A stretch of 34,738 bases of DNA, taken from contig JAALKB010000012.1 in the NCBI GenBank assembly GCA_011088265.1, positions 1 to 34,738 on the forward strand, written 5' to 3'. Position numbers and translations under genes: made by a program. The notes below the pieces were generated by a model, which was not told the DNA's origin, ran no database searches, and saw only the letters and a program-made list of their open reading frames with translations. Shown here in pieces: positions 19,244 through 34,738 of the stretch. Each line of letters begins with the position of its first letter. Positions within the stretch are counted from its first letter, which is position 1. The stretch comes from Gammaproteobacteria bacterium. Lineage in GTDB: Bacteria > Pseudomonadota > Gammaproteobacteria > Arenicellales > Poriferihabitantaceae.

Positions 19244-19320
19244 CGGGGTGTAGCGCAGCCTGGTAGCGCACCGCAATGGGGTTGCGGTGGTCGGAGGTTC
19301 AAATCCTCTCACCCCGACCA
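19244..19320 (+). tRNA. tRNA-Pro (anticodon GGG)
   Basis: A complete 77-base tRNA with CGGGGTG pairing CACCCCG, then A and an encoded CCA. The D-arm is TAGCGCAGCCTGGTAGCGC, the anticodon stem CCGCA/TGCGG with loop ATGGGGT, and the T-loop is GGTTCAAATCC. The GGG anticodon reads CCC and CCU. It is the last core gene before an accessory region that begins 25 bp downstream with an IS element, a common arrangement for tRNA-associated islands. Confidence 0.97.
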
Positions 19321-19345
19321 ATAAAATCAAGGCCCATTCCGGGAC

Positions 19346-19387
19346 AGATAGGTAACACCTTATACTGAAGAGATGGGTAACACATTC
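19346..19387 (+). repeat. Left terminal inverted repeat of the IS481-like element
   Basis: Begins AGATAGGTAACA and ends GGGTAACACATTC. The outer 12 bases match the other end exactly; the inner part matches with about nine substitutions. Confidence 0.85.
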
Positions 19388-19399
19388 GGCATGAAGGGA

Positions 19400-20414: not shown

Positions 20415-20433
20415 TTAAAACCTCCAAAGCCTT

Positions 20434-20475
20434 GAATGTGTAACCTATTTCTCCGGTATCTTCTGTTACCTATCT
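20434..20475 (-). repeat. Right terminal inverted repeat of the IS481-like element
   Basis: Reverse complement begins AGATAGGTAACA and ends GGTTACACATTC, mirroring 19346-19387. Confidence 0.85.
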
Positions 20476-20633: not shown

Positions 20634-22114
20634 GTGGCAACTTCAAATACAACAAACCACTTATCCGACAGAGCAAGCTATGTGGTTGTATTCGACCATA
20701 TGATTCCACGCGACGCTCATCCGAAAAGGAAACTCACGCCCCGCCAGGGTACCGCACTATTTAATTCTAGAACCGCATTTCGACCCGCCGCTCCGACTGG
20801 TTCAACCCTGTCGACAGAGTGGGTTGAAGAGGCCACGTTCGCCTTGGCGAGGTACGACTACATTCTGCTGGAGGATTATTTCGGCCTGGATGAACCCGTT
20901 TTAGACCTGATACCGGCCGACCGCAGGATAATTGCTATGACCACGTCCAAAGTGGAGCATGACGGCGGACTTACCGTAACTCACATTCAGACGCTGATGA
21001 AAACGGAGGCTGCCCTTTACCAGGTTATTGTTCCGTCTGGCCTCGACGCGCTTCGACTATTCTTCGAATGTCGATCCAATGGTATTCCCACCGATGCGTT
21101 AACGATCTTCGCAGCATCGGAATCCCAGTTGTGGTCCCGGTTTGCATCTTTGGTGTTTGGCGCCAACACGATCACGGCCCATCCGACACCGAGTCATTTT
21201 GCATCGGTTCCGACACTAACAGGGAAGTTCGGTCCATTGCAGACGCTAGCAGGAGTCAGGATCTTTAGGTATTACTGGAAATGGGGTGGAGCGATCACTT
21301 TCTCCCGCTGCCCATAACGCAGCCTACCAGGCGCTGGGGTATCCTGGGCTGTACTTGCCCTTCCCCTTGATGACGATATCAGAGCTCGAAGAGATTCTGG
21401 ACGGGTTTAGCAGGTTGGGCTCGCCGCTTATAGGCTTAACCACGACCTCACCACTAAAAGAGGTAGTGAGCGAGCAGGCGGTTCCCAATAGGGAAATCGT
21501 CAACGAAACCCGCTCTGCGAATGTATTGCATGTTGGCGCCAGTGAGTGGCATTCGGATACCACCGATGATACTGGGCTGATTAGAATCCTTGAGGACTAT
21601 TCGATTGAAGTAGCGGGGAAAAGGGTGTCGGTTATGGGAGCGGGTGGTTCAGGCCGGGTTGCCACCGCTGCTTTGTTAACCTTGGGTGCTGATGTATCCG
21701 TCTACAACCGAGGCGAAACTCGGTTGAAGCTCGCGGCAGCGTGTTTATCAGCACCCTGTCTTCCCCTGAGCGCCTTTGATTCTATCGATGTGGATGTCAT
21801 TGTAATATTCTATTCCCATAGGCAAGAACAACGAGGAGATACCATTTGACATCACCAGATTATCGCCTGGTACTGTTGTCATCGATTTTGGATATCGCAA
21901 TATCCCGAATATTCTGACCCAGACGGCTCGTGATCTTGGCGCGATGGTGATTGATGGCACCATCATGCTGAAAATGCAATTGCTCGCTCAGTTTAAAGCG
22001 TTGGTGGGGCAGAGCATGCCGCTGGAGGTGTTGGTTTCGGTAATGGAGGCGCATCATATGCATCCATCGGGTGAAACACCGATAGACAGCAGCCGGGCAG
22101 CGATCTATTTCTGA
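20634..22114 (+). pseudogene. Dehydroquinase/shikimate-dehydrogenase-like bifunctional protein, frameshifted
   Basis: The three reading frames join into one protein. The first 210 or so residues (20634 to about 21262) look like the barrel of type I 3-dehydroquinate dehydratase. The frame then shifts into a shikimate dehydrogenase (AroE) domain beginning LGITGNGVERSLSPAAHNAAY, which corresponds to GNPxxHSLSPxxHN. TTTSPLKE holds the catalytic lysine position, SDTTDDTG the aspartate, and VMGAGGSGRVATAAL the NADP-binding loop. A second shift near 21812 leads to IPIGKNNEEIP, VVIDFGYRN and DGTIMLKMQLLAQF, ending at TGA 22112-22114. In the first domain the usual Schiff-base lysine and catalytic histidine are not visible (ALYQVIV where others have K; IIAMTTSK where others have a YHD-type motif). 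GTG at 20634 follows AAGAG. It may be a dead or re-purposed enzyme. Confidence 0.75.
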
Positions 22115-22144: not shown

Positions 22145-23344
22145 ATGTTGTCTCCAATATCAACAAGCGAGCAAGATTTATTGGGCCGGGTGAGGAATCT
22201 TGCCCAAGGCGTATTCCTAGAGCGAGCTGAATGCTACGACGAAGGTTTGGCGTTCCCGGCAGAGAATTTTGATGATCTGTTTTCTAACGGCTTGATGATG
22301 GTTCCGGTTTCGAGGAAGTGGGGTGGCCTCGAATGTGCTCCAGCGTATGGCAATGTCATTGGACTTTGGCGGATGACGGTCGAGATTGCTCAAGCAGACC
22401 TGTCCTTTTCGCGCTGTTGGGAAGGACACAACAACGCAATGTTGTTATTGGATGCGCTGGGTACGGATGAACAAAAGGAACGATGGTTCACCGATGTGGC
22501 GCAAAACGGGGCTAGATGGGCTGCCTGGAGTGGAGAGCCACAATCCAGGGTTCCCGGGCAGAAGCGAAAAGTCGGGACGACACTTGAAAAGGTAAGCGGA
22601 GGCTATATCGTCAGTGGCAATAAGGTATTTGCCACCAGCGCACCAGGAGCAAATTGGGCGATTTTATTGGTTAGTCAAGAAGGCCCCGGTGCGGCGCGAG
22701 ACTCAAGAAATGGAGAAAACAGTTTAATGATGATGGCTTGTAATCTGTCGGATGCGACTGTAAGCTTTGGCGATAAATGGTGGAATCCCATCGGAATGCG
22801 GTCGACAGTTTCGTATCAAGTGAATTTCGCTGATACCTTTATCCCTGATGAAAACGTGATTGGTGAGGTCGGTCAGTATATTCGAGATGGCTTCCAGGCC
22901 TATTTTACACCCCAATACGCTGCAAGCTTTTTTGGAGCAGCGTCGGGTGCGTTTGAGTCTGCGTTAATGTTTGTTCGGTCTCAGGGAAAACAATCCGATC
23001 CTTTCATCCAACAACATGTGGCGGCGATTCAAATGAACCTCGACACCCTCGATTTGTGGTTGCAGGATGTTGCAACGAAAGTCTCAGGTGCCGATAAAAC
23101 CGCATCCCGAATCGCAGGGAGTAAGCTTAGATGGCTTGCGGAAACGTTGTCCGAGGACACCGTGAAGCGTTGTGTCAAGATGTGTGGCGCCCGAAGTCTG
23201 AACAAGCCCAGTCGGTTGGAGCGAGTCTATCGTGACCTTTCGATCTATACCTTGCATGACAATGCGGATCATATGTTGGCAAATGTGGGGCGCGAGCTGC
23301 TAGGAGAACCGACTCAGGATGCTTTCTTTGCAATAAAGACCTAA
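22145..23344 (+). CDS. Acyl-CoA-dehydrogenase-fold flavoprotein (DszC-like monooxygenase)
   Basis: An intact 399-residue protein of the acyl-CoA dehydrogenase superfamily: helical N-domain (about 1-125), beta-barrel with the flavin-contact segment WAAWSGEP...SGGYIVSGNKVFATSAPGANW (about 120-175), and a C-terminal four-helix bundle. The C-terminal signature VYRDLSIYTLHDNADHML is like that of flavin-dependent monooxygenases such as DszC and N-hydroxylases rather than true acyl-CoA dehydrogenases, and no acyl-CoA catalytic glutamate is evident. Such enzymes use reduced flavin supplied by a separate reductase. ATG at 22145 follows AAGGTGAAG. The transporter gene starts 8 bp after its stop, so the two are co-transcribed. 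Substrate unknown. Confidence 0.82.
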   Translation: MLSPISTSEQDLLGRVRNLAQGVFLERAECYDEGLAFPAENFDDLFSNGLMMVPVSRKWGGLECAPAYGNVIGLWRMTVEIAQADLSFSRCWEGHNNAMLLLDALGTDEQKERWFTDVAQNGARWAAWSGEPQSRVPGQKRKVGTTLEKVSGGYIVSGNKVFATSAPGANWAILLVSQEGPGAARDSRNGENSLMMMACNLSDATVSFGDKWWNPIGMRSTVSYQVNFADTFIPDENVIGEVGQYIRDGFQAYFTPQYAASFFGAASGAFESALMFVRSQGKQSDPFIQQHVAAIQMNLDTLDLWLQDVATKVSGADKTASRIAGSKLRWLAETLSEDTVKRCVKMCGARSLNKPSRLERVYRDLSIYTLHDNADHMLANVGRELLGEPTQDAFFAIKT

Positions 23345-23352
23345 ATTAAGCG

Positions 23353-24573
23353 ATGACAAACAGAAAAATAGACACACGTGGTGTGATTGCCCCGATATGG
23401 TGGTTGGCGTTGGGATATTTTCTGTTTTACATTCCCTATAGCGCATTAGTAAAAGCGCTGTCTTCTGGCCTGCTTGAGCAAGCAGGTGTCATATCAAGCG
23501 CTATTGAGCATGTAGCAAGCCTTGAGTTTCTGCCAGCGGTCCTGGTGGGTACGGTGATTACCATGCCGCTCATTCTTTTTTGCCTCGGTTGGTTTAAGTA
23601 CCTGAAAACTGTGACGGTTTGGGGTATTAAGCTTCCGCATTTCTCTCCGATGGCTGCATTATCGGGTGTGGCATTTGCGATCATTATTGCAACTACGACC
23701 TTGGCGTATACCTTTCACGGCGTATCAATTCTGTTTGCGCTGCTACTCATGCGCGGAGGGGTTCTGATTATGTCTCCCGTGCTCGATAAAGTGTTTATCA
23801 GGCCCGTAAAATGGTATTCGTGGTTGGGTTTTGGAAGTAGCATTATCGCGCTTGGCATAGCAATGATCCAGGTCTCAGAATTCGTTTTAACTGGGTTAGT
23901 ATTTTTGAACCTTTGCGGATACCTGCTTGGGTATGCGTTTCGTCTTCAGGCGATGACCCAATGTGCCAAAGATGTAAGTGAGTCAGTCAATCGGCGATTT
24001 TTTGTTGAGGAGAACATCTCCGCCATGATGACGTTGTTGGCTGTGCCTGGTCTGATTGCGCTGCTTGGAATCGGTGCGCCAGGAGAAATGTTGCGAACCG
24101 GGTTCACTACCTTTTTCCTATCGGATCTGGTTTGGCCGGCATTGCTAATCGGTGTGCTGTACGGATGTCTTGGCGTTTTCGGTAGTTTGATCTATTTGAA
24201 TCGAAGGGAGAACACATTCGCTATTCCGGTTAACCGTTGCTCTAGTTTGCTTTCAGGGGTTGTGGCCTCGGCTATTTTATTTTTCGCATTTGGAAATAAC
24301 CCCATTAGCACTGTCCAGTTGATCAGTGTGGCTATTGTGATTATTGCCTTGATTCTGATGTCATTTTTCGACTCCCAACAACTTGGGGCTCAAGGCCTGC
24401 GGCAAAAGATCGTTCTGTTTATTTGTGACCACAATCAGGCGCGCGCTCCCATGGCGGCGGCAATCTGTAATGATTATCTCGAAAAAAAACCCAAACTTGA
24501 TCTCGGATTTGGCCCCGCTAATGCCGTCACTTCTAAAAGTGCGGGTTTGCATGCGCCGAATACTGGGGGATGA
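23353..24573 (+). CDS. DMT-like membrane transporter running into an LMW tyrosine phosphatase domain
   Basis: Residues 1-345 hold about ten hydrophobic segments typical of a small-molecule transporter of EamA/DMT type (first around GYFLFYIPYSALV, last ISVAIVIIALILMSFF). The frame then continues into IVLFICDHNQARAPMAAAIC, the CX5R active loop of low-molecular-weight tyrosine phosphatases or LMW arsenate reductases (Cys358, Arg364), and the SAG strand. It stops at a TGA after a five-G run (24565-24569), halfway through that domain. The rest of the phosphatase fold is encoded from 24570 in another frame. The start follows the upstream stop by 8 bp. Whether the product is a fusion or a decayed gene cannot be settled from sequence alone. 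Confidence 0.75.
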   Translation: MTNRKIDTRGVIAPIWWLALGYFLFYIPYSALVKALSSGLLEQAGVISSAIEHVASLEFLPAVLVGTVITMPLILFCLGWFKYLKTVTVWGIKLPHFSPMAALSGVAFAIIIATTTLAYTFHGVSILFALLLMRGGVLIMSPVLDKVFIRPVKWYSWLGFGSSIIALGIAMIQVSEFVLTGLVFLNLCGYLLGYAFRLQAMTQCAKDVSESVNRRFFVEENISAMMTLLAVPGLIALLGIGAPGEMLRTGFTTFFLSDLVWPALLIGVLYGCLGVFGSLIYLNRRENTFAIPVNRCSSLLSGVVASAILFFAFGNNPISTVQLISVAIVIIALILMSFFDSQQLGAQGLRQKIVLFICDHNQARAPMAAAICNDYLEKKPKLDLGFGPANAVTSKSAGLHAPNTGG

Positions 24574-24887
24574 GTGCGGTTGCTGTATCTGTTTTGCAAT
24601 CAATGGGGATTAAAGCGGATCGACATGTTCCAAGGCAGGTCACTGCCTCTGATTTACATCAATCTGACGTTGTGATTTGTATGACGGGATCACAACGCGA
24701 TACGTTAATCGGTCGACATCCCTGGGTTGAAGAAAAGGTTGAGAATCTCGGTTTTACCGCAGCCCTTCATAAAGAGGACGCCAGTAGCGCTGACTCCCTC
24801 AAAGAGATCGGCGTGGCTCTGCGTGAACGAATCGTCGATTTTTTCGCTGACCGTTTTAGGAGAAATGCCCAGACGGCTGGGGAGTGA
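24570..24887 (+). CDS. C-terminal half of LMW tyrosine-phosphatase-like domain
   Basis: Encodes MSAVAVSVLQSMGIKADRHVP...VVICMTGSQRDTL...LREI-type sequence matching the second half of the LMW phosphatase fold: helix after the SAG strand, H-x-P-R turn, DVVICM strand and C-terminal helix. The region where family members have the general-acid Asp-Pro reads HKEDASSAD, so the proline is absent. The first half (P-loop) lies in the previous ORF. ATG overlaps the TGA of that ORF as ATGA, so coupled translation is possible. A split within the fold makes a one-base loss in the G run more likely. Confidence 0.65.
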   Translation: MSAVAVSVLQSMGIKADRHVPRQVTASDLHQSDVVICMTGSQRDTLIGRHPWVEEKVENLGFTAALHKEDASSADSLKEIGVALRERIVDFFADRFRRNAQTAGE

Positions 24888-25000
24888 TTTACCGGTTTGG
24901 TCGGGTTTTTTTAAGCCAAAACTCATGATAGAAACGAGTTTTTTGGATTTATCGGTGTATTTAAGCGAAGCACTGGTAATCAATAAAAAAGGAGTATAAG
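24888..25000 (+). other. Short intergenic region with weak hairpin before the oxidase leader ORF
   Basis: CCAAAACTC (24916-24924) and GAGTTTTTTGG (24936-24946) form an AT-rich imperfect stem with a T tract, perhaps a weak terminator. The strong ribosome binding site AAAAAAGGAG ends at 24994 in front of the short ORF at 25001. No promoter is convincing. Confidence 0.35.
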
Positions 25001-25042
25001 ATGCGAAATAATTTATTCACCAAGAACGAGGTCTTAGAATAA
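25001..25042 (+). CDS. 13-codon leader ORF coupled to the multicopper oxidase
   Basis: ATG at 25001, six bases after the strong Shine-Dalgarno sequence GGAG, encodes MRNNLFTKNEVLE and a TAA whose last base is the A of the oxidase ATG (TAATG). The oxidase start itself has a weaker upstream site (CGAGG, 11 bases away). Ribosomes terminating here would be placed on the oxidase start. The peptide has no recognised features. Coupling is inferred from spacing. Confidence 0.5.
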   Translation: MRNNLFTKNEVLE

Positions 25043-25824
25043 TGGTTAGAAAACTGATAAACACAAGATCATTGTTGAAATATTGTTCCTTGTCTTTTCT
25101 GCTTTTGTGGGTCTCGTTGCCAGCTTACAGCAGTGAGCAGTGTTCTTGCGAGTGGACCATTTCTGCTGATGTTGTTGCACTGGATCAGGCTTACTACAAC
25201 AACCGGATGGGTACATTTCAGCCAGAGGGGATGGTTTTTGCGTTGAAGAGTGATGTGGTCAGCAATTCCTCAAATACCACAGACTTAACGCCGGGCAATG
25301 TTATGCTGAGACCCGGTAAGCGGGCCAGACCGATCGTTCTTAGAGCGAATGTGGGGGATTGCCTGGAGGTGACTTTCACTAACTTGTTGGCAGAAAAGTC
25401 AGTGGCATCCACTAACCCGGTTCTTGGCACAGTTGAATCTCCCTATGACCCTAATGACCCGGCTTCGGCGCAATGGAAGCCTGATGAGTTCGCCCAGTTT
25501 CCCACCCGGGAATCAGGTATCCACGCAATGGGGATGCAGGTTTGCCCCGTTGGCTCAGATGACGCAATCTTATCTGATGGGAGTTGGGTTGGAGCCAACC
25601 CCAGCAGTTTGGAGTGTCCGATAGGCCAAGAAGGAGGTAGTGCGAATTGTTTGGTAGGGCCAGGGAAAATTAGAACTTACAAATTCTTCGCTGGGGGGGA
25701 AGGCACCTTCCTGCTCTATGATGCCGCTGCACCAATTGGGCAAGGCCCGGACTTCGGTGGTCATCCTATGCTGGGGACTGTTTGGTGCTGTAAACGTTCA
25801 ACCCTATGGCGCACTTTGGTTTAG
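25042..25824 (+). pseudogene. N-terminal part of giant multicopper oxidase (broken by frameshift)
   Basis: This segment and the ORF at 25927-30747 are one gene in the same frame. It starts with a Sec signal peptide: basic MVRKLINTRSLLKY, hydrophobic SFLLLWVSLP, and probable cleavage after AYS. It continues into a first cupredoxin domain (IVLRANVGDCLEVTFTN). After CTGGGGACTG (25771-25780) the conserved sequence moves to the +1 frame (LFGAVNVQPYGALWF...). The 25042 frame itself meets TAG at 25822-25824. About 75 bp later, near 25853-25861, a second indel returns the homologous reading to the original frame (NNQGKQISVSLIIDYD). Without correction only a 260-residue exported fragment would be made. 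Confidence 0.75.
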
Positions 25825-25926
25825 AAGTCAGGTTACCGCAGCTGATCTGAAACTGGCAACAATCAGGGCAAACAGATCTCGGTCAGCCTCATAATTGACT
25901 ATGATGCAAAATATACCGATGGTCCG

Positions 25927-28900
25927 TTGAAAGGGCGGCCCATCCTCAAAATGTTGAATGATGAAAACCAGATTGTTCATACGGACTTAACCGCTATCAT
26001 TACAGGACCAGGAAGGGGGAATTTCGATAATTCTGAGACAAATCCCGCCTACCCTGACAGAGGAAAGTCGTATCGGGAAATCACCGCGATTTACCATGAT
26101 GACTATACAACTTCTCAGTCGTTTGACATCTTCGCTCGAGATACAAATGCGAATAAAGGATTGCAACAAGCGCTAACTGCTGGGCAGGATCTCTTCGGAA
26201 TTAACTATGGTATGGGAGCGATCGGTGCACCCATTTGGGCGAACCGGATTGAAGTAGGCCCCAACTATGCTTGTGCTGCTTGTCGGTATGAGGAATTCTT
26301 TTTAAGTTCCTGGCCGCTCGGTGACCCGGCAATGATTGTCGATATTCCCGCTAACGCCACTAACGCAACTTCCAATGGTGAACCCGTTAAAGGCCCTAAA
26401 GCAACTCAAGCGTACTATCCTGATGATCCTTCCAATGTCTACCATTCCTATATTGGTGATCATACGAAGTATCGGATTTTGCATGCAGGCACAGACATCA
26501 CCCATGTCCACCACCAGCATGCCCATCAGTGGCTTCACTCGCCTAATAGTCCAGACGGTAACTACCGAGATAGCCAGATGATTACCCCGGGTTCGGCATT
26601 CAATTTGGACTATGTCTATAATGGTAGCGGAAATAAAAACCATACCGTCGGCGACTCTATTTTCCATTGTCACTTTTATCCTCACTTCGCTCAGGGGATG
26701 TGGTCGCTGTGGCGGGTGCATGATACCTTTGAGGCGGGCACTAATCTCGATGAATCAGGAAAGCCTTTGACCGATGGTTGGAATCGTGTATTGCCAGACG
26801 GTGAAATCGTAACGGGAACTCCGACACCGGCGATTGTTCCCATTCCAAGCTACGCTATGGCGCCCATGCCGGCTAAAGTAAGGGTTTGTCCTGCCTATGG
26901 TGCTGAATCAGTGGCACAGCGTGTAGGCGAGAGCTGCCCCGCCGCACCAAGCGCTGACGCGACACCTGTTGGGCATATGGTGGTGGTCAGCGAGGAAGAT
27001 CTCAAGGCTGGCAAAAACCCTGGATATCCCTTCTACATACCTGAGGTGTCGGGACACCGGGCGCCGCATCCACCGTTAGATTTTGCCTGTGCTGGTGGGG
27101 TTGAGACTGTCCATGAGAATGGGCTCGACATTCCAAGATGCATTGGCGAAGATTACCATGACGGTGGGTTACCTCGCCATGTAGTTCTGGCCGAAGAAGG
27201 CGATCTTTACGAGAAGCACAATCGATGGGACTTTACCAAAACCAACGACAGGCTCTTGGCCATCCAGCTCTCAGAAGAAGGCACGCTCCCGGAGCAAGCG
27301 GGTATGAAGGCCAATGCTCAGCGCATCCATCCCTCGTTCACGCCGGAAGGCAGCGCCGCTAACTTTATACTAAACGGGCAACAGCCTCAGCAAGGCGCGC
27401 CTTATGCCGATCCGGCTATTAACCTCGATGGGACTCCCATCCTGAAACCGGATGGCAGCAACAAACTGGTCTATAAAGCGGCTAACATCCAATTGGATGT
27501 TGTGTTTAACAAAAAAGGCTGGCACTTCCCCCAACAGCGTATGATCTCTCTTTGGGGTGACGTTCAACCCACCATTGACGGGAAGCGCAAGCCGGAGCCC
27601 TTCTTCTTCAGGGCCAATTCTTTCGATGTCGTGGAGTACTGGCATACGAATCTAATGCCAAACTATTACGATCTGGATGATTTCCAGGTACGTACTCCAA
27701 CCGATGTATTGGGCCAACACATTCACTTGGTGAAGTTTGACGTTACCTCCTCGGATGGTGCGGCAAACGGTTTTAACTACGAGGACGGGACGTTTAGTCC
27801 ACAAGAGGTGCAGGAGCAAGTCGGAGCGATCCAGAAAAACGGCGGATTGTATTCTCACGATGGCTCAAAGCAGAATCAACTAACGCTCAAGACGATTCCG
27901 TTCTTTGGGGAGGGGCCGCCTAATCAGGATGATCCCGAATATGGCAAGCCGCAATGGCTTGGTGCCCAGGCGACGATTCAGCGTTGGTATGCCGATCCGT
28001 TATGTAATGATACCGGTGCCCAAGGCGATTCGCCCTGTAAGCAGGATCTTGGTGTGAATACCGAAGATAGAACCATTCGCACCGTCTTCACCCATGACCA
28101 CTTTGGACCGTCCACACACCAACAAGCCGGATTGTATGCTGGCCTGGTGATCGAACCATACGGTTCTGAGTGGAAGTTGGTTGATGGGACGAAAATGGGT
28201 GGTCGAGAGGTACCGGGTCCTGGTGGAGCTACGACCTCTGATGGTGGCCCAACCAAGTGGGAGGCGATGATTATTCCGCCCACTGCAAGCGGCCAGAAAC
28301 CTTATCGAGAGTTCATGCTTGAGTTCCAGGACAAGACGCTGGCTTACACGGCAGGTAGTAAGAAAGAGAAAACTCCTTATCAGGAGTATGATAGTGAAGA
28401 ACCACCCACCGATTACTGGGGATGGGCTGATCCAGATCACGTGGTCCGTGCACCACCAAATTTCGCTGTCAATAAAAACCCAGCTCCTAATCCCTATTTG
28501 GTCTCTACCAGTGAGAGTACGGGTAGTTGGTCGGTGAACTACACTAATGAGCCGCTCCCTTTTAGGGTGGCGAGTGCTGAGGCGGGACATCCCGAGCAAT
28601 CTGACCTTGGTGAAGCCTTCGTTTCCATGACGCGTGCAGACGAGGCACTGAATGTGCAGCCCACCGCTGGCACGCCGATCAGTGAAGGTTCCCCATTTAA
28701 GTTCCCCCCACCTTTTGCAGGTGCTGAACCGACCGACCCTTATACGCCATTGCTTCGCGCATATCCAGGCGAGCAGGTACAGGTCAGAACCCTGGTGGGC
28801 GCACACGAGATGCCCCATGCATTCACGATGCATGGTTTAAACTGGCTATTCGAACCTGCGAACAGGAATTCGGGTTTTAGAAGTACTCAGGGTATGGGTA

Positions 28901-30747
28901 TCTCTGAGTATTATGAGTTTATTTTCGAAGTACCGAGAGTGACTCAAGATACGGCAGAAGTTGCAGATACGACTGATTATCTCTATGCCCCTAGCTCAGG
29001 AGTAGACGGTGTGGAGTTCGGTAACTGGGGCATTCTGCGGTCATATAAAACCGAGCAGCATGACTTGCCACCGCTACCGCATCAACCCATCAATACCACG
29101 GCAGTTCCAGTGTGCCCCACTGGTGCGCCCAAGCGAAGTTTTGAGCTCGCAGCGGTTTATGCAGGCCCTAGCGGTACTACTGGAGTCTATGACCTCTTAA
29201 AGGAACCAATGCTCTACAATTCCCGAGGGAAGGCCGGCAAACCTGCTCAGAAAATCATTAATCGATACTCGATGATGTATGTTTACAATAATGATCTGGA
29301 AACCGTTGGCGATACCCTTCAACTAAAAGCTGATGCTCCCATCGAACCAGTCGTCATTCGGGCAAATGCAGGAGATTGCATCGAGGTTACGCTTCACAAT
29401 AAGCTGCCAGATTTTCAGCTGAATCGGGGCTTGAGCGTTGGTGAGAATGCGTTCTGCGATAAAACTGATTCGACTTGTGCAGGTGTAACGTTACAAACCT
29501 CGAAGCAAGTGGGGCTTCATCCCCAACTGCTCACTCTGGATATGAATCAAAGCAACGGCGTCAATGTTGGTTCCAATCAGATTCAAACCGCAGATATCGG
29601 GGAGTCCGTCACGTATCAGTGGTATGCCGGTAATGTCGAATGTAATGAAGCTGCGGAATGTACCCATACACCGGTTGAGTTCGGGTCGGTTCCCCTCACC
29701 CCGGCAGATCCGCTGATGCAGCACAACTTCGGTATGATCGGTGCGCTGATTGTCGAGCCTGAAGGGGCGACCTGGACGGAGGATGTGAACACCCAGGCTC
29801 AGGCGACCGTGAAAGTTGGGGGTACCTCCTTCCGGGAGTTCGTTCTGATGCTTCAGGATGACGTCGCCGATCTGAAATACGGGGAGCTGGTTAATAACGG
29901 TAATACGGGTACTAAAAAGCCCACCAATGTTCAGGTTCCCAACTCCAGGTCCACTCAGGCAGTGAACTATCGCACGGAGCCGCTGGCCTATCGATATGGA
30001 GAGAGTAATTTCCTTACGTCGACGTCGATTGCCCAGGCATTATCAAACTCCCAGGTGTCGGGTGACCCCGAGACGCCAGTGTTTGCTGCCGCTGCGGGTG
30101 AGCCTGCGAGAATCCGGTTGTTGCACCCAGCGGGTCAAAACGATCAGTCGATGACTATTCACGGCCACTTATGGCAGGAACTTCCCTATACCGACAATTC
30201 AACCAGGATTGGGGACAATCCAGAGTCTGAATGGTTAGGTGGACGCACCAGCTTTGTCCCCAATTCATCATTCGAAGTGGTCATTGATTCGGCCGGTGGT
30301 GTTGCTGCTGCCAAGGGCGACTATCTATACCGTGCCTTTGTCGGTAAAGACTTTCAGAATGGTATCTGGGGTGTAATGCGAGTCGGTGATAAAGATGCCG
30401 ATACAGTGACCATTACCCGTTTTGATGAGACCGGGGTATTTGATCGTAACACGGTTAACTTGGCCACTGGTCAAATGGCAGATACAGTGAAAGTTAGGCT
30501 TAAAGGTGAAGCCGAGGCTGTTGTTAAAGTAGATATGATGACGGGTAAGTGGGGGCTTAAAAAGGCAAATCCTCCTACAGAAGTGCTGGTCGTCTCGTCT
30601 CATGGTGGTAAAAAAGTAGCCAAAGGTTACACCGGTGCTCTTATTCGCCCAACAGATGCATCCAAAGCGAAGAACCCTAAAACGCACATCCCTCCTCGAA
30701 TAAATGAAGAGCAGTTTAGGGCCAAGGCAAGGGTACATCCGCTTTAG
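25927..30747 (+). CDS. Giant multicopper oxidase, main part (Mn(II)-oxidase-like)
   Basis: With the preceding segment this makes about 1,900 residues of tandem cupredoxin domains, comparable to the large multicopper oxidases implicated in Mn(II) oxidation. The four HxH motifs that hold the trinuclear centre are visible: HAH in HHQHAHQW (from 26518), HCH in HCHFYPHFAQGM (from 26665, also giving the type 1 copper Cys, His and Met), HIH (from 27718) and HDH in THDHFGPSTHQQ (from 28093). Further domains carry remnants of the same motifs without the Cys (HAFTMHGLNW, MTIHGHLWQE), so they are probably structural. The listed start (TTG 25927) is only where the unbroken frame begins; the true start is 25042. 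The gene ends in a strong terminator, so it closes its own transcript. Oxidation of Mn, Fe, Cu or an organic substrate outside the cytoplasm is possible. Confidence 0.85.
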   Translation: MKGRPILKMLNDENQIVHTDLTAIITGPGRGNFDNSETNPAYPDRGKSYREITAIYHDDYTTSQSFDIFARDTNANKGLQQALTAGQDLFGINYGMGAIGAPIWANRIEVGPNYACAACRYEEFFLSSWPLGDPAMIVDIPANATNATSNGEPVKGPKATQAYYPDDPSNVYHSYIGDHTKYRILHAGTDITHVHHQHAHQWLHSPNSPDGNYRDSQMITPGSAFNLDYVYNGSGNKNHTVGDSIFHCHFYPHFAQGMWSLWRVHDTFEAGTNLDESGKPLTDGWNRVLPDGEIVTGTPTPAIVPIPSYAMAPMPAKVRVCPAYGAESVAQRVGESCPAAPSADATPVGHMVVVSEEDLKAGKNPGYPFYIPEVSGHRAPHPPLDFACAGGVETVHENGLDIPRCIGEDYHDGGLPRHVVLAEEGDLYEKHNRWDFTKTNDRLLAIQLSEEGTLPEQAGMKANAQRIHPSFTPEGSAANFILNGQQPQQGAPYADPAINLDGTPILKPDGSNKLVYKAANIQLDVVFNKKGWHFPQQRMISLWGDVQPTIDGKRKPEPFFFRANSFDVVEYWHTNLMPNYYDLDDFQVRTPTDVLGQHIHLVKFDVTSSDGAANGFNYEDGTFSPQEVQEQVGAIQKNGGLYSHDGSKQNQLTLKTIPFFGEGPPNQDDPEYGKPQWLGAQATIQRWYADPLCNDTGAQGDSPCKQDLGVNTEDRTIRTVFTHDHFGPSTHQQAGLYAGLVIEPYGSEWKLVDGTKMGGREVPGPGGATTSDGGPTKWEAMIIPPTASGQKPYREFMLEFQDKTLAYTAGSKKEKTPYQEYDSEEPPTDYWGWADPDHVVRAPPNFAVNKNPAPNPYLVSTSESTGSWSVNYTNEPLPFRVASAEAGHPEQSDLGEAFVSMTRADEALNVQPTAGTPISEGSPFKFPPPFAGAEPTDPYTPLLRAYPGEQVQVRTLVGAHEMPHAFTMHGLNWLFEPANRNSGFRSTQGMGISEYYEFIFEVPRVTQDTAEVADTTDYLYAPSSGVDGVEFGNWGILRSYKTEQHDLPPLPHQPINTTAVPVCPTGAPKRSFELAAVYAGPSGTTGVYDLLKEPMLYNSRGKAGKPAQKIINRYSMMYVYNNDLETVGDTLQLKADAPIEPVVIRANAGDCIEVTLHNKLPDFQLNRGLSVGENAFCDKTDSTCAGVTLQTSKQVGLHPQLLTLDMNQSNGVNVGSNQIQTADIGESVTYQWYAGNVECNEAAECTHTPVEFGSVPLTPADPLMQHNFGMIGALIVEPEGATWTEDVNTQAQATVKVGGTSFREFVLMLQDDVADLKYGELVNNGNTGTKKPTNVQVPNSRSTQAVNYRTEPLAYRYGESNFLTSTSIAQALSNSQVSGDPETPVFAAAAGEPARIRLLHPAGQNDQSMTIHGHLWQELPYTDNSTRIGDNPESEWLGGRTSFVPNSSFEVVIDSAGGVAAAKGDYLYRAFVGKDFQNGIWGVMRVGDKDADTVTITRFDETGVFDRNTVNLATGQMADTVKVRLKGEAEAVVKVDMMTGKWGLKKANPPTEVLVVSSHGGKKVAKGYTGALIRPTDASKAKNPKTHIPPRINEEQFRAKARVHPL

Positions 30748-30767
30748 TTAACGAAGTAAATCCCCTT

Positions 30768-30807
30768 CACTCCTTGGTGCGTAAGCACCAAGGAGTGAGT
30801 TACTTTT
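30768..30807 (+). terminator. Strong rho-independent terminator after the multicopper oxidase
   Basis: CACTCCTTGGTGC and GCACCAAGGAGTG form a perfect 13-bp stem closed by a GTAA tetraloop (GNRA type), followed by AGTTACTTTTT. The hairpin begins 20 bp after the stop codon. Confidence 0.92.
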
Positions 30808-30825
30808 TAAAATACATTCCTGTTA

Positions 30826-30831
30826 TATAAT
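30826..30831 (+). promoter_or_regulatory. Possible -10 element upstream of the PhyH gene
   Basis: TATAAT at 30826-30831 is a perfect -10 hexamer located after the terminator and about 80 bp before the next gene. The region 16-18 bp upstream is only T-rich (CTTTTT) rather than TTGACA. A promoter is needed here because the preceding terminator is strong. Confidence 0.4.
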
Positions 30832-30911
30832 AACTTACGTGTGGTCGCTTGCCATTTTCAAGGTACTCGACTACGTCGCCTTTCTTCAATGAATGTAGAT
30901 AACCCTTTCTA

Positions 30912-31757
30912 GTGGACTTCAAGAAACTTAGCTCAGACCAGCGGGAAGCGTTTCATCGCGACGGATTCCTGGTTGTACCTGGCGCGCTAGATCATCATTT
31001 TGTTGAGCGACTGGTCGAAGCTGGGGATGAATTTGCAGCGCCATTTCTCGGTAAGTTCGAGGTTTTGGATAAACCCTGGTATAACGATTTGGATTTTCGA
31101 CCAAGGCTATTACAGAAAAAAGCATTTTTGGACCTTGTGTCCTATGCACCAACCGTCTCTTTGGTGGTCCAGTTGCTGAGTGAAAATATCCATCTCCATT
31201 CAACCGCTCTCACCTATAAGCGGCCAGAGAATCCGTCTTTCAAGGCATTTCGACGCGGATGGCATCGGGACCTACGGCTGCCCCGGGATCTCGGGCATGT
31301 CAACGTCCCAATGGCCGGGATCAAGATATGCTATTGCCTAAGTAATTTCGACGTAGCAGACTCGGGGATGACGATTCTGGCCCGAGGCAGTCATCGTCGG
31401 GATGAACCATTGGTCATGTCCAAAGATGGCATCGATCCGGAAGACTTTGAGGTTTGTGACCTTAACTTAAAGGCAGGAGATGCAGTACTGTTTCAAAACG
31501 GTATCTTTCATACAGCGACACCGAACCGCACGGATCGAGTCGCAAAGCGGATTATTTATGGTTATGCCTATCGATGGCTCAAACAGGAAATTTACCTTGA
31601 CCCGCCTGATGCCCAACTTCTTCGCCAAGCTGATCCGGTCACCCGGCAGCTGATTGGGGGCTATAGAGATATCGATACCCGGCCCTGGGCCTTGCTTGAG
31701 TGGACTAAGAAGCACGATGTACGCTCTACCCCAGTACCCTGGTATATTGAAATATAG
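30912..31757 (+). CDS. Phytanoyl-CoA dioxygenase (PhyH) family protein
   Basis: A 281-residue Fe(II)/2-oxoglutarate-dependent oxygenase of the PhyH family, which hydroxylates or halogenates small molecules. The N-terminal EAFHRDGFLVVPGAL is typical. The iron facial triad is His118 and Asp120 in WHRD and His200 in GIFHTATPNRT. The 2-oxoglutarate arginine is probably Arg213. Because Asp120 is kept, it is a hydroxylase/oxygenase and not a PhyH-type halogenase (family knowledge). Start is GTG at 30912, overlapping the TAG of a seven-codon ORF (30889-30912). Another ATG-led coupled ORF lies downstream before the LLM gene. Substrate unknown. Confidence 0.85.
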   Translation: MDFKKLSSDQREAFHRDGFLVVPGALDHHFVERLVEAGDEFAAPFLGKFEVLDKPWYNDLDFRPRLLQKKAFLDLVSYAPTVSLVVQLLSENIHLHSTALTYKRPENPSFKAFRRGWHRDLRLPRDLGHVNVPMAGIKICYCLSNFDVADSGMTILARGSHRRDEPLVMSKDGIDPEDFEVCDLNLKAGDAVLFQNGIFHTATPNRTDRVAKRIIYGYAYRWLKQEIYLDPPDAQLLRQADPVTRQLIGGYRDIDTRPWALLEWTKKHDVRSTPVPWYIEI

Positions 31758-31774
31758 TGAGGTATAGTAATATT

Positions 31775-31840
31775 ATGTCTATAAGCAATACGCGAGTTTT
31801 ACCATCTCCACACTCGACGCTTCCTAATTTTTTGATCTAA
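31775..31840 (+). CDS. Short upstream ORF ending on the LLM gene start (TAATG)
   Basis: ATG at 31775 opens 21 codons (MSISNTRVLPSPHSTLPNFLI) ending in TAA at 31838-31840, whose final A begins the ATG of the LLM gene. A GAGG lies 12 bases before its start, a loose spacing. The LLM start itself has no Shine-Dalgarno sequence, which would fit re-initiation. The peptide resembles nothing known to me and may be fortuitous. Confidence 0.3.
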   Translation: MSISNTRVLPSPHSTLPNFLI

Positions 31841-32916
31841 TGTCAAGTCTACGCTTTCATTGGATGCTCCCCAAAGGGGGAGAGATGACAGATCAGGAAA
31901 CCTCGCGGGTATTGACCACAAACAAGACCTCATACGCTGGCGTACCGGACATGGAGAACTGGGTTCACTTCGCCAGGACGGCTGAGGAATGCGGCATCGA
32001 ATCGTTGTTGCTCTCATTCGGTAATTATGAACCTGACACCCTGCACATCGCCTGCGCCCTTGGTAGAGAAACAACCTCGCTAAAATATATTGCGGCGTAC
32101 CGCTTAGGCTTGATGCAGCCTACACTGTTTGTTCAGCAACTCAACACACTATCCCATCTTGTCGATGGCCGGGTTTCCGTGAATGTTATTGCCGGCAGTT
32201 CGCCCGCCGAACAGCGCGGTTATGGTGATTACCTGAATCACGATGAACGATACGATCGGGCGGAGGAATTTCTGGCGATTTGTCACCATTTCTGGCGTGA
32301 TAGCAAGACAGCTTTCGATTACACGGGGCGATACCATTCGGTTGAGGGGGCGAGAATCCACACACCATTTTGTGATCATTTCCGATCGACACCGGAAATC
32401 TACGTTTCCGGTCACTCAGAGGGCGCAAAATCGCTTGCACTCAATGCGGGGACGTGCTGGTTACGCGTGATCGACTCGCCAGAGGCTTTGGCACCCCACA
32501 TTGAAATTGCATCAGCGGGGGGAATCGAAGTGGGGCTCCGATTGAACGTCGTTTGCAGAGAAACCAAAGCAGAGGCGATTAGGGCCGCTCAAAGTCTACA
32601 GGCAGATGATGCTACTATAGAGCAGGTTCGACGCTTCTTACTGAAAAGCGATTCGAAAGTGTTTAAAGATTCGCTTTCTAACGCTGACGACTATGGATGG
32701 TTGACGGATTATTTGTGGGCAGGCCTGGTACCCAGCTATGGCCCCTCTGCCATTACGATTGTAGGCACTCCGGAAGAAGTTGCATCGGCGTTTTTTGAAT
32801 ACAAGGCAGTTGGTATTCACCAGTTTATCATCTCGGGATGGCCAAAAATTGACGAAATGAAAATCTTCGGATCCGAGGTGTTGCCAATTGTGAGAGCGAA
32901 AGAAAATGCTGTCTAA
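31840..32916 (+). CDS. LLM-class flavin-dependent monooxygenase (SsuD/RutA-like)
   Basis: A 358-residue bacterial-luciferase-like TIM-barrel monooxygenase that uses FMNH2 from a separate reductase. The first strand LRFHWMLPKGGE matches the SsuD family, supporting ATG 31840 rather than the later ATG at 31885 (which has GGGGGAG upstream but would delete this strand). VSVNVIAGSSPAEQRGYGD (about 110-128) and DERYDRAEEF (about 131-140) are typical LLM motifs; PEIYVSGHSEGAKSLA contains the FMN-phosphate region. Relatives include alkanesulfonate monooxygenases and RutA. The immediate RidA neighbour favours a RutA-like N-substrate over a sulfonate, but this is inference. Confidence 0.88.
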   Translation: MSSLRFHWMLPKGGEMTDQETSRVLTTNKTSYAGVPDMENWVHFARTAEECGIESLLLSFGNYEPDTLHIACALGRETTSLKYIAAYRLGLMQPTLFVQQLNTLSHLVDGRVSVNVIAGSSPAEQRGYGDYLNHDERYDRAEEFLAICHHFWRDSKTAFDYTGRYHSVEGARIHTPFCDHFRSTPEIYVSGHSEGAKSLALNAGTCWLRVIDSPEALAPHIEIASAGGIEVGLRLNVVCRETKAEAIRAAQSLQADDATIEQVRRFLLKSDSKVFKDSLSNADDYGWLTDYLWAGLVPSYGPSAITIVGTPEEVASAFFEYKAVGIHQFIISGWPKIDEMKIFGSEVLPIVRAKENAV

Positions 32917-32948
32917 CAATGTCGTTGTCATCCAGTTGGTAAACCACT

Positions 32949-33347
32949 ATGCCCCATAAAATCCCCATTGCGACCAATGCTGCCCCACCGTCCGTGGGAA
33001 CCCATACCCAGGCCATTCGGGTCGGAGATCTCGTATTTACGACCGGTCAAACGGGTCGTGATCTCAACGGTAAGCTTGCCGAGGGACTAGAGGCCCAAAC
33101 CCGACAGATGTTGGCCAATCTTGAGGTGATACTGAATGCGGCCGGTTGCTCGTTGAGCGACATCGTGCGGGTTAACCTGATGATGGCCGATCTTAAAACC
33201 TTCAAGGCTATCGATCAAATCTATGCGGCCTGGCTCCCAGACAGAGCGACTTCCCCTCTACCCACGCGATCAGCACACGTGGCCGCGCAGTTGCCGGCAG
33301 GCGCGCTGGTCATGATGGATGTGATTGCTGCGTATCCGGGTGAATAG
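32949..33347 (+). CDS. RidA (YjgF/YER057c/UK114) family protein
   Basis: A 132-residue RidA-fold protein. GDLVFTTGQTGRDLNGKL, TRQMLANLEVILNAAG and PTRSAHVAAQLPAGALVMMDVIAAY are family hallmarks; Arg107 matches the carboxylate-binding arginine of RidA. Compared with the archetype, the GPYSQA region reads GTHTQAI (His for Tyr), the SGQ serine is Thr, and the active-site Glu near the end is Asp. It therefore probably belongs to another Rid subfamily and may not deaminate 2-aminoacrylate. It lies 32 bp after the LLM gene and its TAG overlaps the next gene's GTG (TAGTG), giving a tight operon. Confidence 0.9.
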   Translation: MPHKIPIATNAAPPSVGTHTQAIRVGDLVFTTGQTGRDLNGKLAEGLEAQTRQMLANLEVILNAAGCSLSDIVRVNLMMADLKTFKAIDQIYAAWLPDRATSPLPTRSAHVAAQLPAGALVMMDVIAAYPGE

Positions 33348-34225
33348 TGGGTGCTGCATATAATGAGGTAGTCGTATCGAAAGGGCTGGCAAGGGATTTG
33401 CTGCATGCGGTGTCAGCCTTGCCGAGATATGAGAACAAAGCATATTACGACCTGGCATTACAGCAGGAAATTCATGATCACATCATGGATAGACACCTGG
33501 ATGGGTTTGGCGCGTTGGTCAATGAGATTCGCGCTGCTTTGCGTCAGCGTCCTCATTGTGTGGTCGTGAAGGGGCTTGATTGGGATGAGAAAAATCGCCT
33601 TTTTGTGGGCTTAAATCGTGCTTTTGGTGATCTTGTGGCAGGTCCTTATGAGGCGCCTCGTGCTCAACTGGTTCACTACATTTATCCCGCTGCGGATCTG
33701 GCGGCATCGGGCAAAGTGAAATACGAAACGGAAAACCTCCATACGGATACCGCGGATTGGTTTGAGCCTGTCGCGCTGATTTCGATGGTGTGTGTCCGGC
33801 CAGATTCATCAGGCGGGGGGCGTTCCCAGATTCTTGACCACACTGATGTGAAAGAGCGGATCATGGATGGTTTGGGCGAGGAGGCATTAGAAGTGCTTCA
33901 GACATATCCTGTTCCCTGGCAAATTGCCCCCTATCTTGGTGGGGGAGTGAGTCGGCGAAAAATCATTGACGGGGAGAAACTATGCTGGCGCCGCTACACC
34001 ATTGATATGGCGCTGGATTCTCTCGGTGAATCCCTCCCCGATGACCTGGTTGGGGTTTTAGACAGAGTAAATAGCGTCATCTCTCCGTCCCCGAGAGAAT
34101 ATTTAATGCAGGAGGGTGAGATTATGTTTCTGGACAACCACCGATCAATCCATGCCAGGTCGCCTATCAATACCGTCGGTGGTTGCAACCGTCTGATGAT
34201 ACGCAGCTGGATACAAACCCACTAA
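33347..34225 (+). CDS. TauD/TfdA-family 2-oxoglutarate-dependent dioxygenase
   Basis: A 292-residue Fe(II)/2-oxoglutarate oxygenase of the TauD/clavaminate-synthase-like group. The metal ligands are His132 and Asp134 in LHTDTADW and His269 in DNHRSIHARSPI; the 2-oxoglutarate-binding arginine is probably Arg286 in RLMIRSWI. GTG start at 33347 shares its first base with the stop of the RidA gene, so it is coupled. The substrate cannot be assigned; family members oxidise taurine, carnitine precursors and amino-acid derivatives. It ends 23 bp before the convergent partial gene; the short inverted repeat CAGACT/AGTCTG (34231-34247) between them has no T tract. Confidence 0.87.
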   Translation: MGAAYNEVVVSKGLARDLLHAVSALPRYENKAYYDLALQQEIHDHIMDRHLDGFGALVNEIRAALRQRPHCVVVKGLDWDEKNRLFVGLNRAFGDLVAGPYEAPRAQLVHYIYPAADLAASGKVKYETENLHTDTADWFEPVALISMVCVRPDSSGGGRSQILDHTDVKERIMDGLGEEALEVLQTYPVPWQIAPYLGGGVSRRKIIDGEKLCWRRYTIDMALDSLGESLPDDLVGVLDRVNSVISPSPREYLMQEGEIMFLDNHRSIHARSPINTVGGCNRLMIRSWIQTH

Positions 34226-34248: not shown

Positions 34249-34738
34249 CTAACTTCCTACCAGCATCCACAATTTGTCGGCATTTTCAACAATATAAGAG
34301 GGTACAGTGAGGACGACCTTATAGTTCCCTGGATTAGGGACATTCACCTGGGCTGAGTAAATCCCAGGGGATTGCTCGGCTAGCTGTATTCTTGACTGCC
34401 AGACAGGGGAATATAGCAATACCCCGACATTTTCCTGTCCAGTTAGGGCTTCCCCGGTCTGTGTGTCGGTGATCTTGAATTTGAGATCATAGGGCTGATT
34501 AGCGGTAGGAGCTGAACTGACCGTTTCAACGTTCACAAACGGGATGAGGGCGAGTGGCGCGGCGTCCGGTGAAGGCGCGATGCTGACATCGAAGCAATGA
34601 ACGATCTGTAGTGCATCCAGATAGAAGATGACCTGAAGTTCACCGGGTTTTTGTAATGTAACTGCGGTTTCGTACGGCCCCGGGTTGGTGTCTCTTAGGT
34701 TTGGGGCCCCCGCGGGGGCGGGGGGGGGGGGGGGGGGG
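34249..34738 (-). CDS. Partial secreted/periplasmic beta-sandwich protein, cut by contig end
   Basis: The open frame runs off the right edge with no start in the window; GTG at 34536 lies inside a longer open frame (DTNPGPYETAVTLQKPGEL..., then HCFDVSIAPSPDAAPLALIPF), so it is not the start. The visible 160 or so C-terminal residues alternate hydrophobic strands with the pattern of Ig-like domains: YDLKFKITDTQTGEAL, VGVLLYSPVWQSRIQL and PGIYSAQVNVPNPGNYKV, the last resembling YtkA/CopC-like or fibronectin-like modules. It is convergent with the TauD gene. No function is assigned. The terminal G run is artefactual and not coding. Confidence 0.65.
   Translation of the reverse strand, partial: PPPPPPAPAGAPNLRDTNPGPYETAVTLQKPGELQVIFYLDALQIVHCFDVSIAPSPDAAPLALIPFVNVETVSSAPTANQPYDLKFKITDTQTGEALTGQENVGVLLYSPVWQSRIQLAEQSPGIYSAQVNVPNPGNYKVVLTVPSYIVENADKLWMLVGS
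34720..34738. other. Poly-G run at contig end, probable artefact
   Basis: The last 19 bases are all G, preceded by CGCGGGGGC. Such tails are typical of no-signal calls in two-colour sequencing or of assembly edges, not of bacterial DNA. Sequence near this end should be read with caution. Confidence 0.8.

What the first reader, a model, noticed from the sequence alone, without database searches (positions are those of the whole stretch)
22145..34225. Uncharacterised oxidative pathway: DszC-like, MCO, PhyH, LLM, RidA, TauD
Two flavin monooxygenases of different folds, two Fe/2-oxoglutarate oxygenases, a RidA-family protein, an exporter-like protein and an exported copper oxidase lie together on one strand. 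LLM plus RidA recalls RutA/RutC, where a flavin enzyme opens a pyrimidine ring and a RidA-fold protein handles the product; two added dioxygenases suggest stepwise oxidation of a nitrogenous small molecule. It could be biosynthetic (with the DMT exporter) or catabolic. I know no described pathway with this exact set.
Basis: partly seen in the sequence, partly recalled or inferred. Interest (0 to 1): 0.7.

Follow-up and report, generated by a model that had tools for sequence, protein, structure and literature searches.

The report
Undescribed oxidative gene cluster shared across phyla
The window holds one half of a roughly 36-kb set of genes, found also in a few distantly related bacteria and cyanobacteria, that probably builds an unknown, heavily oxidised, sugar- and sulfate-decorated compound; its product and chemistry are unknown and several of its genes are broken in this copy.

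Summary
In detail: DszC-like, transporter-like, multicopper oxidase, PhyH, LLM, RidA and TauD genes lie on one strand at 22145-34225. The unit is larger. It starts with a divergent AroDE-like gene (20634-22112) just after a degraded transposase and tRNA-Pro. It continues past the window on contig C312 of the same genome, because one beta-propeller gene spans the two contig ends. C312 adds glycosyltransferases, a sulfotransferase, a deacetylase, two more PhyH enzymes, SCO1 and lipocalin-like proteins. Leptolyngbya has PhyH-LLM-LLM-x-RidA-TauD (62/53/60/73/44% identity). An Algicola MAG has AroDE-lipocalin-DszC-transporter/LMWP-LLM-MnxG. In 120 cyanobacterial genomes, both genomes with this LLM clade carry the rare DszC clade (3/120; p=4e-4). 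RutA/RutC is not supported. The LLM is SsuD/MsuD-like but lacks W195 and R296 of the sulfonate site. Best reading: an undescribed biosynthetic cluster for an oxidised, glycosylated, sulfated, exported product. Chemistry is inference. Five frame breaks in AroDE, transporter/LMWP and oxidase mean this copy may be decaying.

The parts
19320..20440 (-). degraded transposase remnant between tRNA-Pro and the cluster (left edge of the island)
   Evidence: multiple frame breaks in the minus-strand translation; resembles an IS481/IS3-type transposase by eye only; tRNA-Pro 19244-19320
20634..22112 (+). AroDE-like gene: unassigned N-terminal domain plus shikimate-dehydrogenase domain; two frame breaks (about 21180-21250 and 21730-21850)
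   Evidence: NCBIfam aroE E=2.9e-21 for 21286-21849; matches the intact 505-aa Algicola protein L031:9040-10557 in three frames at 36-41%; N-terminal part has no solved relative
22145..23344 (+). DszC/SfnB-like acyl-CoA-dehydrogenase-fold flavin monooxygenase
   Evidence: Pfam acyl-CoA DH domains; SfnB E=8.9e-26, DszC E=3.5e-24; 47-57% to homologues in 8 other genomes or plasmids
23353..24887 (+). multi-pass membrane protein fused to a low-molecular-weight phosphatase/ArsC-like domain; one frame break near 24565
   Evidence: LMWPc in both halves; intact 535-aa fusion in Algicola L031:12609-14216, 54%
25042..30747 (+). exported MnxG-like multicopper oxidase; two frame breaks between about 25780 and 25930
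   Evidence: NF041487 MnxG 1007.7 bits over 25927-30747 and 93.1 over the N-terminal part; HCHxxxH copper motif; 43-44% to Algicola and G087 copies
30912..31757 (+). PhyH-family Fe/2-oxoglutarate oxygenase (WHRD and FHTATPN motifs)
   Evidence: PF05721 E=3e-11; nearest solved relative MysH E=4e-8; 62% to Leptolyngbya L014:110-955
31840..32916 (+). LLM flavin monooxygenase, SsuD/MsuD-related clade without the full sulfonate site
   Evidence: PF00296; MsuD 7jv3 E=2.9e-40; alignment of ten homologues; 60-63% to Algicola, G087 and Leptolyngbya
32949..33347 (+). RidA-family imine/enamine deaminase-like protein (PTRS arginine kept)
   Evidence: PF01042 E=3e-26; 73% to Leptolyngbya, 65% to G087
33347..34225 (+). 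TauD-family Fe/2-oxoglutarate oxygenase, VioC/clavaminate-synthase-like (HTD, DNHRSIHAR and RLMIR motifs)
   Evidence: PF02668; L-arginine beta-hydroxylase E=4e-4; weak fold match to the VioC/OrfP/KDO1/AsnO group; motifs; 44% to Leptolyngbya
34249..34737 (-). C-terminal part of a YncE-like beta-propeller protein whose N-terminal part is on contig C312
   Evidence: G087 homologue residues 102-555 map to C312 20482-21834 and residues 548-685 to window 34701-34297; YtkA-like domain

Best explanation
This is one half of a roughly 36-kb, rarely occurring, laterally spread specialised-metabolite cluster. SHOWN: gene content, co-location, conservation in two phyla, catalytic motifs of the 2OG enzymes, RidA and the copper oxidase. 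INFERRED: an AroDE-like enzyme (and a DAHP synthase near the LLM in two relatives) supplies a shikimate-type cyclohexanoid unit. VioC-like TauD and PhyH enzymes hydroxylate an amino-acid-derived or cyclic unit. Two reduced-flavin monooxygenases (LLM and DszC-like), fed by an FMN reductase, oxygenate an amine or C-N centre, and RidA hydrolyses the imine or enamine formed. Glycosyltransferases, a deacetylase and a sulfotransferase on the adjoining contig decorate the product. The membrane protein moves it, with its fused LMWP domain removing a phosphate, and the exported MnxG-type copper oxidase acts on it outside the cell membrane.
For: Family assignments. Conserved neighbourhoods: Leptolyngbya L014 PhyH-LLM-LLM-MTlike-RidA-TauD-lipocalins with FMN reductase, opine dehydrogenase and two sulfotransferases; Algicola L031 AroDE-lipocalin-DszC-membrane/LMWP-LLM-MnxG, nearly all overlapping or closely spaced; Algicola L013 GT2-GT4-YdjC / LLM-WD40-sulfotransferase-MTlike / PhyH; G087 DszC ... 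LMWP ... SCO1-YncE-MnxG and LLM-2OG-ATPgrasp-MTlike-RidA-GT4-2OG near DAHP synthase. Four cyanobacteria have DszC with multicopper oxidase and Pst-type transporter genes, most with FMN reductase, lipocalins and sulfotransferase or glycosyltransferase genes. Continuation of this genome's own cluster on C312 with genes matching the Algicola, Leptolyngbya and G087 clusters. The LLM clade occurs only with the DszC clade in 120 cyanobacteria (p=4.2e-4). DszC clade in 1 of 368 other gammaproteobacterial genomes, and that genome also has the LLM clade at 63%.
Against: No enzyme activity, product or scaffold-forming enzyme is known. The AroDE, membrane/LMWP, MCO and a WD40 gene are frame-broken in this genome, so the copy may be dead. 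Linked oxyanion ABC importers in cyanobacteria and G087 could point to nutrient uptake. No MsuE-like FMN reductase was found in this genome. In Algicola and G087 the two gene blocks lie on separate contigs, so their linkage there is unproven. TauD occurs only in the window and Leptolyngbya among the loci seen.
Confidence: 0.5

Rival explanations
1. The set makes or decorates a cell-surface sulfated glycan or glycolipid rather than a small secreted metabolite; the oxygenases modify sugar residues and the copper oxidase acts on the surface polymer.
For: Adjoining genes are GT2, GT25, GT47, polysaccharide deacetylase and a sulfotransferase 53% identical to the Algicola one; G1152 carries a GT2-NodS-deacetylase fusion and a sulfotransferase, G1176 a NodZ-like protein and several sulfotransferases.
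Against: No polymerase, flippase or capsule-export genes were recognised; ATP-grasp, RidA, AroDE-like and VioC-like enzymes are unusual for glycan synthesis.
Confidence: 0.2
2. A nutrient-assimilation system like msuEDC/sfn: FMN reductase, LLM and DszC-like enzymes release sulfite or another oxyanion from imported organic compounds.
For: LLM closest to SsuD/MsuD, DszC-like closest to SfnB, FMN reductases closest to MsuE/SsuE; PstSCAB-, Tup- or Wtp-type importer genes lie near in cyanobacteria and G087.
Against: MsuD sulfonate-site residues W195 and R296 are not kept; no sulfonate transporter was recognised; linked glycosyltransferases and sulfotransferases; scores far below the curated cut-offs.
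Confidence: 0.12
3. Two independent gene blocks (AroDE-DszC-membrane/LMWP-MCO and PhyH-LLM-RidA-TauD) are next to each other in this genome by chance of island assembly.
For: In Algicola and G087 they are on separate contigs; in Leptolyngbya DszC is on another contig than LLM.
Against: An LLM of the same family sits inside the first block in Algicola (L031) and lies within about 1-12 kb of DszC in Gloeothece, G523 and G1176; LLM and DszC clades co-occur. Contig breaks limit the test.
Confidence: 0.15
4. A RutA/RutC-like route in which the LLM opens a nitrogen heterocycle and RidA processes the product.
For: LLM and RidA are adjacent; both are distantly related to RutA and RutC.
Against: RutA 25 of 498 bits and RutC 37 of 169 bits; the LLM is far nearer SsuD/MsuD; no other rut genes recognised in the cluster.
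Confidence: 0.03

Closest known systems
MsuD/SsuD alkanesulfonate monooxygenases (group C flavin, LLM fold)
   Same: LLM fold and best solved-structure match (7jv3, E=2.9e-40); FMN reductase of MsuE/SsuE type nearby in cyanobacteria
   Different: W195 and R296 of the sulfonate site replaced (V and Y in the window); genomic setting is rich in glycosyl- and sulfotransferases, not sulfur assimilation
DszC/SfnB flavin monooxygenases (acyl-CoA dehydrogenase fold)
   Same: full-length homology, E=1e-24 to 1e-26
   Different: 85-91 bits against cut-offs of 850 and 431; a separate clade of its own
MnxG manganese-oxidising multicopper oxidase
   Same: long MnxG-like architecture; copper motif HCHxxxH
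   Different: about 1,100 of 3,100 bits; lies in a biosynthetic-looking neighbourhood; split by frameshifts here
VioC/OrfP/clavaminate-synthase-like amino-acid hydroxylases
   Same: HxD and DNxRxxH motifs; weak sequence and fold match
   Different: only local sequence similarity; substrate unknown
MysH of mycosporine biosynthesis (PhyH fold)
   Same: nearest solved relative of the window PhyH; cyanobacterial occurrence
   Different: E only 4e-8; no mycosporine core genes were recognised in the window or C312
RutA/RutC pyrimidine catabolism
   Same: an LLM enzyme next to a RidA-fold protein
   Different: neither protein falls in the Rut families

Membership tests
Alkanesulfonate monooxygenase (SsuD/MsuD) | sulfonate-binding residues W195, R225, R296, A/S299 (PMC8234197) | tested here: not met
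   alignment to 7jv3: R225 and S299 kept, W195->V, R296->Y in the window; neither position is W or a conserved R across ten homologues
Alkanesulfonate monooxygenase (SsuD/MsuD) | curated NCBIfam cut-off | tested here: not met
   177.4 of 510 and 174 of 518 bits
RutA/RutC | NCBIfam RutA and RutC cut-offs | tested here: not met
   25 of 498.3 and 37.3 of 169.1 bits
RutA/RutC | other rut genes alongside | tested here: not met
   none among the annotated genes of the window cluster or C312; small unassigned ORFs not excluded
DszC / SfnB | curated cut-offs | tested here: not met
   85.3 of 850 and 90.7 of 430.9 bits
MnxG manganese oxidase | curated cut-off over the full length | tested here: not met
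   1007.7 + 93.1 of 3100 bits, in two frames
MnxG manganese oxidase | copper-ligand motifs | tested here: met
   HxH motifs and HCHxxxH found
MnxG manganese oxidase | Mn(II) oxidation | not testable with these tools
   needs an enzyme assay
RidA | Rid fold and the conserved arginine | tested here: met
   PF01042 E=3e-26; arginine of PTRS in the RidA position; TIGR00004 100.2 of 106.25 bits, just under the cut-off
TauD/VioC-type 2OG oxygenase | H-x-D ... H iron site and 2OG arginine | tested here: met
   HTD 132-134, DNHRSIHAR 263-271, RLMIR 282-286, matching motifs in Leptolyngbya
PhyH 2OG oxygenase | H-x-D ... H iron site | tested here: met
   WHRD 117-120, FHTATPN 199-205
Shikimate dehydrogenase / AroDE | curated aroE and AroDE cut-offs | tested here: not met
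   75.8 of 200.2 and 66.3 of 598 bits on the open 187-aa part; N-terminal half of the Algicola homologue matches no solved structure
Mycosporine cluster | core cyclase, methyltransferase and ligase genes next to MysH | tested here: inconclusive
   none recognised by Pfam/NCBIfam in the window cluster or C312, but some C312 ORFs have no family

The most novel reading that the evidence does not exclude
A previously undescribed natural-product family, exchanged between Gammaproteobacteria and Cyanobacteria, built from a shikimate-type unit by a pair of unlike flavin monooxygenases with RidA, then glycosylated, sulfated and finished outside the cell by a dedicated MnxG-type copper oxidase.
Probability: 0.3. 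Interest if true: 0.75.

Novelty: new variant of a known kind. Interest (0 to 1): 0.55.

Why it matters
If right, it is a cluster family in which no NRPS or PKS marker genes were seen, so cluster finders that depend on them may pass it by. It would give a testable function to a divergent SsuD/MsuD-related clade, a DszC-like clade and an MnxG-type oxidase outside manganese oxidation. Relatives with unbroken genes (Algicola MAG, Leptolyngbya cf. ectocarpi LEGE 11479, Gloeothece verrucosa PCC 7822) give concrete starting material.

Tried and rejected
RutA/RutC (family scores far below cut-off). Alkanesulfonate assimilation (site residues lost). TauD protein as a search query in the class: only weak, unrelated hits. 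LLM clade in the 60 genomes around this one: absent from all relatives, so the island is not vertically inherited in the order sampled. Plasmid tblastn with the AroDE-like protein gave only ordinary AroE; with the membrane/LMWP protein only distant homologues in Novosphingobium and Croceicoccus. AlphaFold of PhyH with two sequences failed (pLDDT 32); TauD was poor (pLDDT 53), so its fold matches are weak support. Ten literature searches: those for the gene set or its hosts returned nothing; the one for MsuD found its structure paper. DszC and LLM trees set these proteins apart from most paralogues but leave the inner order mostly open. Pseudogene versus sequencing error for the frame breaks could not be settled: all five in the window fall in the island and none in 13.8 kb of backbone coding sequence (p about 0.03), but the contig end shows what looks like poly-G read artefact.
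Full report
OBSERVATION. Two corrections matter. The transporter-like protein has no Pfam transporter hit and carries a C-terminal low-molecular-weight phosphatase/ArsC-like domain cut by one frameshift; the copper oxidase is MnxG-like and is interrupted by two frameshifts. Directly upstream is a divergent AroDE-like gene with two frameshifts. Upstream of that are a degraded transposase and tRNA-Pro. The LLM clade is absent from all relatives among the 60 genomes searched around this one, so the island looks laterally acquired.

CONSERVED NEIGHBOURHOOD. A genome scan with the LLM found two close homologues. In Leptolyngbya cf. ectocarpi LEGE 11479 (L014) the order is PhyH (62%), LLM (53%), LLM (60%), an unassigned MT-like protein, RidA (73%), TauD (44%), two lipocalin-like proteins, then FMN reductase, opine dehydrogenase and two sulfotransferases on the other strand. 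'MT-like' and 'lipocalin-like' are my working labels, not family hits. In the Algicola MAG, contig C878 (L031) carries AroDE (unbroken, 505 aa), lipocalin-like, DszC (57%), membrane/LMWP fusion (unbroken, 54%), an LLM (41%) and MnxG-like oxidase (44%), closely spaced and partly overlapping. Another contig (L013) carries GT2, GT4, YdjC-like, LLM (62%), WD40, sulfotransferase, MT-like and PhyH. G087, another gammaproteobacterium, has DszC (52%), a Wtp/Mod-type importer whose ATPase is fused to an LMWP domain, SCO1, YncE-like and MnxG-like genes on one contig, and LLM (63%), 2OG enzymes, ATP-grasp, MT-like, RidA (65%) and GT4 near a DAHP synthase on another. The LMWP domain of the G087 ATPase rests on similarity to the Algicola fusion (25%).

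CYANOBACTERIA. Gloeothece verrucosa PCC 7822, G1152, G1176 and Leptolyngbya have DszC with multicopper oxidase and Pst-type transporter genes, and most have FMN reductase, lipocalin-like, sulfotransferase or glycosyltransferase genes; G523 has LLM, FMN reductase, a Tup-like importer, lipocalin-like and DszC; Nostoc sp. UHCC 0926 has DszC near iron-siderophore-type uptake genes without the rest. In the same 120 genomes the DszC clade occurs in three and the LLM clade in two, both inside those three (p=4.2e-4). These genomes are related, so the p-value is a guide only.

THE CLUSTER CONTINUES. An MT-like protein search found a 64% homologue on contig C312 of the window's own genome. C312 (21,839 bases) ends inside a YncE-like gene whose remaining part is the minus-strand ORF at the end of the window: the G087 homologue maps with residues 102-555 to C312 and 548-685 to the window. 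The ends overlap by 66 bases with 39 identical; all 27 mismatches are C or G on the window side, which ends in a poly-G run, as expected of read-end artefact. I conclude that the contigs abut; this is inference, not assembly proof. C312 carries a periplasmic binding protein, two SCO1-like proteins, GT2, GT25, GT47, a polysaccharide deacetylase, two PhyH-type enzymes, two MT-like proteins, a sulfotransferase (53% to Algicola), WD40 (52%, one frame break), lipocalin-like proteins and YncE. The PhyH, sulfotransferase, WD40 and SCO1 labels on C312 come from similarity to annotated Algicola or G087 proteins. Two C312 proteins look like ATP-grasp enzymes to the eye but hit no Pfam family. The joint unit is about 36 kb.

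WHAT THE ENZYMES ARE. The LLM is closest to MsuD/SsuD (E=2.9e-40), yet of the four sulfonate-site residues named in PMC8234197 only R225 and S299 are kept; W195 and R296 are replaced. So it works like a group C flavin oxygenase but is not filed as an alkanesulfonate monooxygenase. The DszC-like protein is nearest SfnB/DszC but far below their cut-offs. RidA keeps its arginine; TauD and PhyH keep their iron sites; the TauD resembles VioC-type amino-acid hydroxylases weakly. The oxidase keeps copper motifs and has an N-terminus that reads as a secretion signal by eye. No MsuE-like FMN reductase was found elsewhere in the genome, so reduced flavin must come from an unrelated reductase if the enzymes work.

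MECHANISM. The most likely reading is a biosynthetic cluster: shikimate-type unit (AroDE-like here, DAHP synthase near the LLM in G087 and in Pseudoalteromonas xiamenensis), 2OG hydroxylation, flavin oxygenation of an amine or C-N centre, RidA hydrolysis, glycosylation, deacetylation, sulfation, export and outside oxidation. Gene content and linkage are shown; each reaction is inference. Rivals are glycan decoration, nutrient assimilation, and chance juxtaposition of two blocks. The importers near the cyanobacterial and G087 copies are the strongest unexplained feature.

STATE OF THIS COPY. Five frame breaks lie in the island part of the window and none in 13.8 kb of backbone genes, while DszC, PhyH, LLM, RidA and TauD are open. 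This fits decay of part of the cluster but could include assembly error.

VERDICT. The set is a new variant of a known kind, an apparently undescribed biosynthetic cluster family, with moderate interest until a product is found.

Noticed in passing
L034:12145-13725 and window 23353-24887: The LMWP/ArsC-like domain is fused to a membrane protein here and in Algicola, but to a ModC/WtpC-type ABC ATPase in G087: the same domain tied to two unlike transporters.
   Followed up: partly
L015:11326-14839, L041:14383-17933, L043:5-2167, L032:11145-12681: A Pst-type phosphate-transporter gene set lies near the DszC homologue in four cyanobacterial genomes; its link to the pathway is unexplained.
   Followed up: partly
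window 34660-34738: The contig ends in a poly-G run; mismatches to the overlapping C312 end are all C/G, as expected from read-end artefact.
   Followed up: yes
L014:3335-4111, L056:7361-8290, L063:7949-8839 and 17467-18330, L013:5888-6697: An unassigned protein of about 260-310 aa with a VVGGLYGLN-type motif recurs in the cluster; Pfam gives only a sub-threshold DUF7790 hit to one copy.
   Followed up: partly
window 19320-20440: Degraded transposase next to tRNA-Pro at the left edge of the island.
   Followed up: partly
window 4086-5684: A 532-aa backbone ORF has no Pfam hit at E<=0.001.
   Followed up: no
L016:3010-17725: Pseudoalteromonas xiamenensis plasmid: LLM (38%) among ATP-grasp genes, an FMN reductase, efflux genes and a DAHP synthase; possibly a distant relative of the pathway.
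   Followed up: partly
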